From Arenibacter sp. 6A1 (GTDB lineage Bacteria > Bacteroidota > Bacteroidia > Flavobacteriales > Flavobacteriaceae): 64,000 nucleotides of DNA. This document shows positions 29,990 through 58,199 of the stretch, one piece after another. Below the pieces are notes generated by a model. The model worked only from the letters and a program-made list of their open reading frames with translations. It was not told the origin of the DNA and made no database searches. The translations under genes were made by a program, and so were the position numbers. Location of the stretch: contig NZ_JAAXCQ010000021.1 of assembly GCF_012272855.1 (NCBI RefSeq), positions 1 to 64,000 of the forward strand. Reading direction: 5' to 3'. The first letter of the stretch is position 1. Each line of letters starts with the position of its first letter.

Positions 29990-30081
29990 GGGCGTTCCCC
30001 TGTCGGGTCGCTCTTTTCGCTGTATCTTTTTTAGGAGCCCTATGGCCTCCCAAAAAAGGATGCCGCTGCAATAGCTAACGC
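29990..30081 (+). repeat. Intergenic repeat element, copy 1
   Basis: It begins GGGCGTTCCC, contains TCGGGTCG, CGCTGTATC and an inner hairpin (TTTTTTAGGAG / CTCCCAAAAAA), and ends GGATGCCGCTGC then CTAACGC. The same ends are found in reverse orientation at 30297-30376. Confidence 0.7.
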
Positions 30082-56594: not shown

Positions 56595-57992
56595 TTATAG
56601 GGTCTCTGCTATTTCTAAGGCTTTGGTCAAGGCTCCTAATTTGTTATAGGTTTCCTGTAATTCATCGGCGGGGTTAGAAGCAGCAACCAAACCAGCACCG
56701 GCCTGATAATGTAATTGATGGTTTTTGCTTAAGAAAGTACGGATCATGATAGCGTGATTAAAATTGCCGTTAAAATCCATAAAACCAATGGCTCCGCCAT
56801 AATAGCCTCTACTGGTTTTTTCATACTTCTCTATCAATTGCATGGCCATATGCTTGGGAGCACCACTTAATGTTCCGGCAGGGAAGGTGTCTGCCACGAC
56901 TTTCATGGTAGAGATTTCTTTTTTGATTTTCCCGGAAACTTTTGAAACTAAGTGAATAACATGTGAGAAAAATTGAACTTCCCTGTATTTTTCCACGGCT
57001 ACCTCACTGCCATTTCTGCTAAGGTCGTTCCTCGCGAGATCTACCAACATAACATGCTCGCTATTTTCCTTGTCATCGGCCCTTAATTGTTTGGCAAGTT
57101 CTGCATCCTGCTCATCATTACCGGTTCTTTTAAAAGTACCTGCTATGGGGTGAATCTCGGCCTTGCCTTCCTTTACGATCAATTGGGCTTCTGGGGAACT
57201 CCCGAAAATTTTAAAATCGCCATAGTCGAAATAAAACAAATAAGGAGAAGGGTTTATGGAGCGCAAGGCTCTATATACATTGAATTCGTCTCCCTTAAAA
57301 TCTTGTGAAAATCTTCTAGAGAGTACCAATTGAAAAACATCGCCGCGTTGACAGTGTTTTTTTGCCTGTTCTACTTGCGCTATATACTCCTCGTCTTTAA
57401 GGTTAGATTCGGGAAGACCTTCTTTAGAGAAATTATAGGAAGCGAAGGTTTTGGCGCTTAGGATTTGTTGTATTTCTGAAATATTATTTTCGGATTTATA
57501 ACAATGGGCAAAAATATAGGCCTCGTTCTTAAAGTGGTTGATCGCAATGATATTTTGGTAAACCGCATAATAGATATCCGGAATCTCCAAAGAATCTGGT
57601 TTTTTTGAAATTTCTAGGTCTTCATAATAACGCACCGCGTTATAAGACATATACCCAAACAAACCATTGTTGATGAATTTAAAATCGTTGGTGTCCGATT
57701 CAAATTTGCGACTGAAATCGTGCAGTATCATTGGAATATTGGTGTCCTTGTCAATGGGGATCTCTTCAGAACTTCCATCAGGAAACTGTTGTACTACCAT
57801 TTCGTTTTCTACTCTAATCGAAGCAATGGGATTACAGCAGATATATGAAAAGCTATTGTCGTTAGCATGGTAATCGCTACTTTCTAATAGAATACTATTG
57901 GGGAACCTGTCCCTTATTTTTAGATATACACTTACAGGGGTAATGGTATCTGCAAGGATTTTTTTGTGGTGAGAATGTAATGGGTACTTCAT
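56595..57992 (-). CDS. trpE: Anthranilate synthase component I
   Basis: TrpE converts chorismate to anthranilate. It has 465 residues. The feedback-inhibition motif LLESSDYH near 34 is the tryptophan-binding LLES site. The chorismate-binding core is DVFQLVLSRRFS, then FGSSPEAQL, IAGTFKRTGNDEQDAELA, HVMLVDLARND, FPAGTLSGAPKHMA with the conserved GAPK, and GAIGFMDFNG. The gene is preceded by the Trp-rich leader peptide and the terminator hairpin, so its expression is expected to be attenuated by charged tRNA-Trp. Confidence 0.97.
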   Translation of the reverse strand: MKYPLHSHHKKILADTITPVSVYLKIRDRFPNSILLESSDYHANDNSFSYICCNPIASIRVENEMVVQQFPDGSSEEIPIDKDTNIPMILHDFSRKFESDTNDFKFINNGLFGYMSYNAVRYYEDLEISKKPDSLEIPDIYYAVYQNIIAINHFKNEAYIFAHCYKSENNISEIQQILSAKTFASYNFSKEGLPESNLKDEEYIAQVEQAKKHCQRGDVFQLVLSRRFSQDFKGDEFNVYRALRSINPSPYLFYFDYGDFKIFGSSPEAQLIVKEGKAEIHPIAGTFKRTGNDEQDAELAKQLRADDKENSEHVMLVDLARNDLSRNGSEVAVEKYREVQFFSHVIHLVSKVSGKIKKEISTMKVVADTFPAGTLSGAPKHMAMQLIEKYEKTSRGYYGGAIGFMDFNGNFNHAIMIRTFLSKNHQLHYQAGAGLVAASNPADELQETYNKLGALTKALEIAETL

Positions 57993-58047
57993 GTGCTGGT
58001 TTTATTCGATGTTATTGCTGTTGATCTGCGATTTTTATTTAAAAAGA

Positions 58048-58078
58048 AAAAAGGCTTGTCGTGATGACAAGCCTTTTT
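58048..58078 (-). terminator. trp attenuator terminator
   Basis: A perfect 13-bp stem (AAAAAGGCTTGTC and its complement) has a 5-base loop. On the minus strand it ends TTTTTTCTTTTT. It lies between the leader peptide and trpE, 56 bases before the trpE ATG. A possible antiterminator pairs the CCTT before the second hairpin with the AAGG of its first arm, but this is unproven. Confidence 0.85.
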
Positions 58079-58106
58079 CTATAGTTTAACTACAAGGGTG
58101 CTTTGC

Positions 58107-58163
58107 TCACGATGTTTGCCGTAAGTTATTCCACCACCAAGTATTTGATATTCTGTTATTCAT
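58107..58163 (-). CDS. trpL: trp leader peptide with three consecutive Trp codons
   Basis: The 18-residue frame reads MNNRISNTWWWNNLRQTS and stops at TGA. Three adjacent Trp codons lie at positions 9-11. It starts 6 bases after a consensus -7 box and ends 29 bases before the terminator hairpin of the trp operon. Ribosome stalling at the Trp codons when tryptophan is short would favour read-through into trpE. A Trp run this dense is strong evidence of a real leader peptide. The predicted transcript would begin at or next to the ATG, so it may be leaderless. Confidence 0.88.
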   Translation of the reverse strand: MNNRISNTWWWNNLRQTS

Positions 58164-58168
58164 TGCCT

Positions 58169-58199
58169 CAAATATAAGAATGAATTCCTTAATAACAAA
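58169..58199 (-). promoter_or_regulatory. trp operon promoter
   Basis: Read on the minus strand, TTTG (58199-58196), 19 bases, TATATTTG (58176-58169) is an exact Bacteroidota consensus, 6 bases before the leader-peptide ATG. Confidence 0.75.

What the first reader, a model, noticed from the sequence alone, without database searches (positions are those of the whole stretch)
58048..58199. Complete trp attenuator: consensus promoter, WWW leader peptide, U-tailed terminator
Upstream of trpE on the minus strand are TTTG-N19-TATATTTG, an 18-residue frame with three adjacent Trp codons, and a 13-bp stem ending in a T-run. These are the parts of ribosome-mediated attenuation, well characterised in Proteobacteria and less so in Bacteroidota. 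The -7 box is only 6 bases from the leader ATG, suggesting a leaderless leader mRNA, which would need an unusual initiation mode for stalling. Basis: the parts are read directly; the mechanism is from established trp attenuation; the antiterminator is inferred.
Basis: partly seen in the sequence, partly recalled or inferred. Interest (0 to 1): 0.78.

Follow-up and report, generated by a model that had tools for sequence, protein, structure and literature searches.

The report
Flavobacterial tryptophan attenuator starting leaderless
This is a tryptophan-sensing on/off switch of a known bacterial type in front of the tryptophan genes; what is less ordinary is that the tiny peptide that senses tryptophan seems to be read from the very first bases of the RNA, an arrangement shared by many related bacteria.

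Summary
On the minus strand, TTTG-N19-TATATTTG, a 5-nt gap, an 18-codon ORF (MNNRISNTWWWNNLRQTS) and a strong U-tailed hairpin precede trpE of a trpEGDCFBA operon. It is a new member of a known family, Rfam RF01692 (Bacteroid-trp; 71 bits, cut-off 49). Relatives keep the Trp run, the hairpin and a pairing absent from the Rfam model: UCGUGA at the leader stop matches UCACGA in the terminator loop (CGUGA and UCACG both present in 100 of 112 leaders). Folding gives an ordinary ribosome-controlled switch: with a ribosome stalled on the Trp codons the antiterminator is favoured in 103 of 104 leaders.

The leaderless idea is a supported inference. The -7-to-ATG gap in relatives is bimodal (5-9 or 13-19 nt); the window's nearest relatives have the short one. 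Start spacing measured in Flavobacterium johnsoniae puts the window's RNA start 0-1 nt before AUG. In the same genome an ilv leader looks leaderless and a his leader nearly so, both with imperfect -7 boxes; thr and phe leaders do not. No 5'-end or regulation data were available. Leaderless trpL is already known in Sinorhizobium, so the initiation mode is uncommon, not unprecedented.

The parts
58196..58199 (-). -33 promoter element TTTG
   Evidence: exact TTTG at the same 19-nt spacing in 22 of 30 short-gap named relatives
58169..58176 (-). -7 promoter element TATATTTG (Bacteroidota TANNTTTG)
   Evidence: strict box found in 72 of 73 named relatives with an ATG leader
58163..58164 (-). predicted transcription start: the A before ATG (1-nt leader) or the A of ATG (leaderless)
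   Evidence: inference from the 4-5 nt between -7 element and start in F. johnsoniae (PMC6847099) and from base frequencies after the box
58107..58163 (-). leader peptide gene trpL, 18 codons plus stop: MNNRISNTWWWNNLRQTS
   Evidence: sequence; related leaders in 116 loci
58131..58139 (-). three adjacent Trp codons, the sensor
   Evidence: run of three in 113 of 116 leaders, of two in 3; leaders were sought by TGGTGG
58120..58125 (-). segment 1, CUUACG: pairs with segment 2 as protector hairpin
   Evidence: MFE; synonymous-codon control over 104 leaders
58106..58112 (-). segment 2, UCGUGAG, overlapping the leader stop codon: protector partner and 5' arm of the antiterminator
   Evidence: GUGA invariant in the 75 aligned leaders, outgroups left out; pairs with the terminator loop in stalled-ribosome folds
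58059..58078 (-). segment 3, AAAAAGGCUUGUC, loop AUCAC and GA: 3' arm of the antiterminator (UCACGA 58064-58059) and 5' arm of the terminator
58047..58079 (-). intrinsic terminator hairpin (segments 3 and 4), followed by a U-rich tail
58066..58183 (-). Rfam RF01692 (Bacteroid-trp) match, model 1-131, 71.0 bits; its first positions fall on the -7 element
56595..57992 (-). trpE, first gene of the controlled operon
   Evidence: Pfam PF00425 and PF04715
51295..56579 (-). trpG, trpD, trpC, trpF, trpB, trpA
   Evidence: ORFs and Pfam PF00117, PF00591, PF00218, PF00697, PF00291, PF00290
58223..58244 (-). terminator-like hairpin after the upstream YceI-domain gene, which limits room for another promoter of the leader

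Best explanation
It is a ribosome-mediated transcription attenuator of the trpEGDCFBA operon that senses charged tRNA-Trp, a member of the Bacteroid-trp family (RF01692). Transcription starts 0-1 nt before the trpL AUG (inferred). A ribosome begins on the 5'-terminal AUG and follows RNA polymerase. When Trp-tRNA is scarce it stalls on UGG codons 9-11 and covers segment 1 (CUUACG), so segment 2 (UCGUGA) is free to pair with UCACGA in the loop and 3' foot of the terminator; the terminator fails and trpE is transcribed. When Trp-tRNA is plentiful the ribosome reaches the UGA stop, which lies inside segment 2 and masks it; the terminator forms. Untranslated RNA tends to close segment 2 in the 1:2 hairpin and also terminates. 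Shown here: the parts, their conservation and the folding preferences. Inferred: the transcription start, leaderless initiation, stalling and the response to tryptophan. The confidence given is for the attenuation mechanism; for the start at the AUG it is nearer 0.8.
For: RF01692 match over the whole model. In 75 aligned leaders (outgroups left out) the invariant columns outside the Trp run all lie in GUGA and in GGCUUGUC...UCACG; CGUGA and UCACG are both present in 100 of 112 leaders. UCGUGA is kept where the leader stop lies before it (L031, L086, L093, L124) and, in ten leaders, where the stop lies beyond it, so the RNA sequence and not the stop codon is constrained. With RNA before Trp codon + 16 nt removed and segment 4 not yet made, GUGA pairs with UCAC with mean probability over 0.5 in 103 of 104 leaders; with the whole leader present in 14 of 104, while GUGA is then paired upstream in 80 of 104. 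That upstream pairing is lost when synonymous codons are randomised (median 0.72 observed, 0.05 randomised; above its own control in 101 of 104). Leaderless: 5-nt gap; F. johnsoniae starts lie 4-5 nt after the -7 element; the short-class spacer has the base make-up of the first 5 nt of the long class (A 0.38 against 0.40), whereas the rest of the long-class leader is A-rich (0.68).
Against: No 5'-end, ribosome or expression data. The antiterminator helix hardly varies, so it shows no covariation (covariation term -0.01), and in single sequences its complementarity is not exceptional: only 28 of 112 leaders beat all but 10 or fewer of 200 shuffles. It was not found in six distant loci (L004, L009, L039, L040, L044, L045). 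In the window's own RNA without a ribosome the protector is weak (0.32) and the antiterminator already likely (0.68) before segment 4 is made (L025). The footprint of a stalled ribosome is taken from other bacteria (recalled). The relatives are not independent of each other.
Confidence: 0.88

Rival explanations
1. The attenuator is real but the leader peptide is translated from a longer mRNA made at an upstream promoter, so initiation is ordinary for Bacteroidota.
For: An imperfect -7-like TAACATTG lies just upstream of the TTTG (seen) and would give about 30 nt of leader; most mRNAs measured are leadered: 87% over 10 nt in F. johnsoniae, 5.5% leaderless in F. psychrophilum.
Against: TTTG-N19-TANNTTTG is conserved at a fixed place in short-gap relatives; a terminator-like hairpin at 58244-58223 closes the upstream gene; the short-gap class lacks the A-rich stretch that the long-gap class has before ATG. 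Whether TAACATTG is conserved was not checked.
Confidence: 0.15
2. A simpler two-state device: ribosome stalling only uncovers segment 2, and the 1:2 protector hairpin is incidental.
For: In the window's own sequence the protector is weak (0.32), and 24 of 104 leaders do not exceed 0.5 for upstream pairing.
Against: Synonymous-codon control; the closing pair 15-35 is U-A in 35 and C-G in 22 of 75 leaders.
Confidence: 0.12
3. A tryptophan-binding RNA or a protein (TRAP-like) controls the terminator and the Trp-rich frame is incidental.
For: None found; not searched for directly.
Against: The Trp run and its distance to the AUG are conserved, and the conserved pairing overlaps the leader stop.
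Confidence: 0.02

Closest known systems
Rfam RF01692 Bacteroid-trp (Weinberg et al. 2010, PMC2864571; passages seen, a table row only)
   Same: Matched over the full model at 71 bits; same Trp run, same place upstream of trp genes.
   Different: The Rfam consensus stops at GGCUUGUC and does not contain the terminator loop or the UCGUGA:UCACGA pairing; several of its pairs are non-standard in the window (marked v).
trpL of Sinorhizobium meliloti (PMC7298713, passages seen)
   Same: Leader peptide whose ATG is the 5' end of the attenuated RNA.
   Different: Different phylum and a 14-aa peptide; there the 5' end is reported, here it is inferred. Hairpins were not compared.
E. coli trp attenuator (recalled, no call)
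   Same: Logic of segments 1:2, 2:3 and 3:4, with a stalled ribosome freeing segment 2 and a ribosome at the stop masking it.
   Different: E. coli trpL has a longer 5' leader with a Shine-Dalgarno site; here segment 2 pairs mainly with the terminator loop and foot.
Leader-peptide attenuators of F. psychrophilum (PMC9723704, passages seen)
   Same: Same bacterial family; leader-peptide attenuation proposed upstream of amino-acid biosynthesis operons.
   Different: The passages seen give no trp leader anatomy and do not link leaderless starts to leader peptides; supplements were not read.

Membership tests
Rfam RF01692 Bacteroid-trp | covariance-model score over the gathering cut-off | tested here: met
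   71.0 bits against 49, model 1-131
Rfam RF01692 Bacteroid-trp | upstream of trp biosynthesis genes in Bacteroidota | tested here: met
   trpE follows; Pfam on seven trp genes; nearest named TrpE relatives are Arenibacter
Ribosome-mediated trp attenuator | short ORF with adjacent Trp codons | tested here: met
Ribosome-mediated trp attenuator | intrinsic terminator between leader ORF and first gene | tested here: met
Ribosome-mediated trp attenuator | mutually exclusive antiterminator freed by a stalled ribosome | tested here: met
   by folding and conservation only; no covariation
Ribosome-mediated trp attenuator | read-through depends on charged tRNA-Trp | not testable with these tools
   needs expression data
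Leaderless mRNA | 5' end at, or within a few nt of, the AUG | tested here: inconclusive
   predicted 0-1 nt from promoter spacing; no 5'-end data

The most novel reading that the evidence does not exclude
A group of related Flavobacteriaceae (Arenibacter, Maribacter, Flagellimonas/Allomuricauda, Cellulophaga, Muriicola, Eudoraea and kin) runs amino-acid attenuators, trp and ilv and nearly his, from leaderless sensor ORFs, in a phylum that lacks Shine-Dalgarno sequences and where leaderless mRNAs are a few percent in the species measured. Ribosomes would load on the 5'-terminal AUG as soon as it leaves the polymerase, which would tighten the coupling that attenuation needs. Related genera with the same attenuator have the promoter about 12 bp further upstream and an A-rich leader, so two initiation modes can be compared in one otherwise conserved switch.
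Probability: 0.6. Interest if true: 0.5.

Novelty: new member of a known kind. Interest (0 to 1): 0.36.

Why it matters
The switch itself is textbook. What it adds: a named antiterminator pairing missing from the Rfam model, and a natural comparison of leaderless against short A-rich-leader initiation in one conserved regulator of a phylum without Shine-Dalgarno sequences. How ribosomes find leader-peptide starts in Bacteroidota, quickly enough for attenuation, becomes directly testable.

Tried and rejected
Leaderless as a genome-wide habit: rejected. TANNTTTG-N5-ATG occurs 85 times in the genome, its reversed control 82 times; of 53 window ORFs of 100 aa or more (most 5' ATG taken as start) the 12 with a strict -7 box within 60 nt have gaps of 14-59. 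Leaderless as a rule for all attenuators of this genome: not met; the thr leader has a 16-nt gap and the phe leader no clear short gap. Single-sequence complementarity as proof of the antiterminator: not significant in most leaders. Covariation of the antiterminator: none. A seventh pair beyond UCGUGA is possible in 24 of the 25 leaders whose loop base there is U or G, in 2 of the 74 where it is A and not in the one where it is C, so it is at most lineage-specific. Fixed-column protector on A2: 70.7% of cells paired against 66.9% in shuffles, but a slide of -3 gives a higher covariation score (0.212 against 0.168), so the column alignment does not settle it; the codon control (40 randomisations a leader) is the better test, though its p-value ignores kinship.

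Rows dropped: of 80 named loci, 73 gave an ATG leader within 450 nt of trpE; L049, L062 and L080 have a leader further upstream, L083 starts with TTG, L120 has a longer frame, L090 and L100 are cut short. L068 lacks a strict box. The terminator script missed L032, L054, L057 and L063, although hairpins can be seen by eye. Alignment A2 (75 rows out of 112) leaves out near-identical rows and nine distant loci, L004, L009, L039-L041 and L043-L046. 8 of 112 leaders lacked GTGA or TCAC where sought and were not folded. The named and unnamed sets overlap in part (L014 and L071 have the same leader); the 43 unnamed loci include the window's own. L127-L155 were fetched but not analysed.

Full report
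What is there. On the minus strand the window carries, in order, TTTG (58199-58196), 19 nt, TATATTTG (58176-58169), the spacer aggca, an ATG (58163), an 18-codon frame MNNRISNTWWWNNLRQTS ending at a TGA (58109-58107), and a hairpin of 13 Watson-Crick pairs plus one G-U (58079-58047) with a U-rich tail. trpE begins at 57992 and is followed by trpG, trpD, trpC, trpF, trpB and trpA. The leader RNA folds at -34.5 kcal/mol, 4.8 standard deviations below shuffles.

Family. A scan of the window against Rfam gives RF01692, Bacteroid-trp, at 71.0 bits (gathering score 49), over the full model. Of 394 genomes sampled from the phylum, the window's own among them, 43 match at E up to 0.001, 39 of them over the cut-off. 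The family comes from Weinberg et al. 2010 (PMC2864571; passages, a table row). The element was noted before the trp genes of F. psychrophilum (PMC6414381, passage), and a transcriptome study of that species reports strong clues for leader-peptide attenuation before amino-acid operons (PMC9723704, passages). The finding is therefore a new member of a described kind. If transcription starts at the ATG, the first twenty or so positions of the Rfam model lie on promoter DNA in this genome.

Conservation. I took the 43 matches and 80 named trpE loci found by protein search, which do not depend on the leader. An ATG leader holding TGGTGG was found in all 43 and in 73 of the 80; the seven others are accounted for under Tried and rejected. 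The run has three Trp codons in 113 of 116 and two in 3. It begins 8 codons after the ATG in 70 of the 71 named leaders with gaps of 5-9 or 13-19, which supports the start codon chosen.

Antiterminator. In 75 non-redundant leaders, nine distant loci left out, the invariant columns outside the Trp run lie in GUGA near the leader stop and in GGCUUGUC...UCACG in the terminator. These blocks are complementary: UCGUGA with UCACGA. CGUGA and UCACG are both present in 100 of 112 leaders; three of the other twelve keep GUGA beside an unchanged loop (L037, L084, L116), three use a shifted GUGAG pairing (L041, L043, L046), and six distant ones do not have it. UCGUGA persists in leaders whose stop codon lies before it (L031, L086, L093, L124) and, in ten, where it lies beyond it, so the RNA is constrained beyond its role as Ser-stop. 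In the window the stalled-ribosome fold pairs GUGA (58110-58107) with UCAC and AAGC with GCUU around an inner hairpin, -10.4 kcal/mol. Over 104 leaders this pairing has mean probability over 0.5 in 103 when the RNA before Trp codon + 16 nt is removed, and in 14 when the whole leader is present; GUGA is then paired upstream in 80. Randomising synonymous codons removes that upstream pairing (median 0.72 to 0.05; 101 of 104 above their control), so the codons seem chosen for the protector hairpin. Against this: the antiterminator shows no covariation because it hardly varies; its single-sequence complementarity is unremarkable; and the window's own protector is weak (0.32).

Leaderless start. In F. 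johnsoniae many starts lie 4-5 nt after the -7 element (PMC6847099, section 14 read). For the window this gives a 5' end on the A before ATG or on the A of ATG. In the 72 named leaders with a strict -7 box the gap to ATG is 5-9 in 30 (exactly 5 in 14), 13-19 in 41 and 30 in one; two more with displaced leaders, L062 and L080, also show 5. In the 43 unnamed loci it is 4-7 in 14, 16-23 in 26, and 3 have no strict box. On a quick TrpE tree of 73 rows the two classes need 5 changes against a shuffled mean of 23.7; the window lies in a supported set of 26 rows, 25 of them short. That set holds Arenibacter, Maribacter, Flagellimonas/Allomuricauda, Cellulophaga, Muriicola, Robiginitalea, Eudoraea and Aurantibacter; Winogradskyella, Joostella and Leeuwenhoekiella outside it have 8-9; the Flavobacterium, Aquimarina, Olleya and Bizionia loci are long. 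In the long class position 5 after the box is A in 34 of 41 and position 4 is C or T in 33 of 41, as for a pyrimidine-A start; in the short class position 4 is C or T in 28 of 30 and position 5 is A in 16 of 30. The base before ATG is A in 23 of 30 short and 24 of 41 long leaders, so it does not by itself discriminate. The short-class spacer has the make-up of the first five bases of the long class, while the remainder of the long-class leader is 68% A. This is what one expects if the short class has no, or almost no, transcribed leader. With gaps of 8-9 the predicted leader is 3-5 nt, short but not leaderless.

How unusual. Leaderless mRNAs are 5.5% of 890 in F. psychrophilum; 87% of F. johnsoniae leaders exceed 10 nt; about 3.7% of Bacteroides thetaiotaomicron 5' UTRs are under 10 nt (PMC7366714, passage). 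In the window itself 12 of 53 ORFs have a strict -7 box within 60 nt, none closer than 14. The exact arrangement is no commoner in the genome than its reversed control (85 against 82). Outside this phylum, trpL of S. meliloti starts with its ATG (PMC7298713, passage), and a C. glutamicum ilvBNC attenuator paper discusses initiation on leaderless mRNAs (PMC11857589, passage). The one search that joined leaderless, leader peptide, attenuation and Bacteroid- found 6 papers; I saw passages of two (PMC7366714, PMC9723704) and only listings of four, and in what I saw none describes leaderless leader peptides in this phylum. Related searches showed none either, from listings and a few passages (PMC2965389 was queried for Bacteroidetes, trpE and leaderless without a hit); only open-access papers are held and supplements were not read.

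Other leaders in the same genome. Upstream of hisG lies MKNKNTHHHHFHTGHQAR with an imperfect -7 box TACTTTTA 7 nt before ATG and, by eye, a terminator; upstream of ilvD lies MQINNNIINVVIIIPEMG with TTTG-N19 and an imperfect TAATATTG 4 nt before ATG and, by eye, a terminator. The thr leader has a 16-nt gap and the phe leader no clear short gap. In 30 ilvD loci of the family (11 without a candidate, several candidates doubtful) five leaders show a 4-5 nt gap (L210, L212, L214, L216, L221; in L212 the second of two ATGs). In 30 hisG loci, 22 have a His-rich leader: four with 7-8 nt (L176, L182, L187, L193), six with 17-19, and twelve without a box in either range by that rule (one mismatch to TANNTTTG allowed there). 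So the trait is shared by some attenuators, not all.

Verdict. An ordinary, well-supported trp attenuator with an antiterminator that can now be named, and a leaderless or nearly leaderless start that is conserved among its near relatives but awaits 5'-end mapping.

Noticed in passing
L161 (minus, about 455-402); L162 (minus, about 672-616); L163 (plus, 1084 on); L165 (plus, 1029 or 1059 on): Same genome: leader peptides rich in His, Ile/Val, Thr and Phe upstream of hisG, ilvD, thrA and pheA, with terminator-like hairpins by eye for his, ilv and phe; his and ilv have very short -7-to-ATG gaps with imperfect -7 boxes.
   Followed up: partly
L062:1676-1960; also L080 and L049 upstream of trpE: A GIY-YIG nuclease-like ORF lies between the trp attenuator and trpE in L062 (Pfam PF01541); a similar sequence is visible by eye in L080 and L049.
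   Followed up: partly
window 30002-30080, minus strand: Flavo-1 RNA (Rfam RF01705), 48 bits against a cut-off of 42; a motif without a clear function in PMC9723704 (passage).
   Followed up: no
L004, L009, L032, L039; L044, L045: In more distant Bacteroidota the attenuator precedes a trpB-like or trpD-like first gene instead of trpE (judged by eye from translations). Of these, L004, L009, L039, L044 and L045 lack UCGUGA; L044 and L045 could pair GGCAGCCU with the terminator stem (GGGUUGCC).
   Followed up: no
L064 upstream of trpE: Pareuzebyella, inside the short-gap set, has a 30-nt gap: the place where the ATG would stand holds ACT, and an ATG lies 25 nt further on.
   Followed up: no
L083 upstream of trpE: A trp leader that starts with TTG, with a long gap; other leaders were sought with ATG only.
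   Followed up: no
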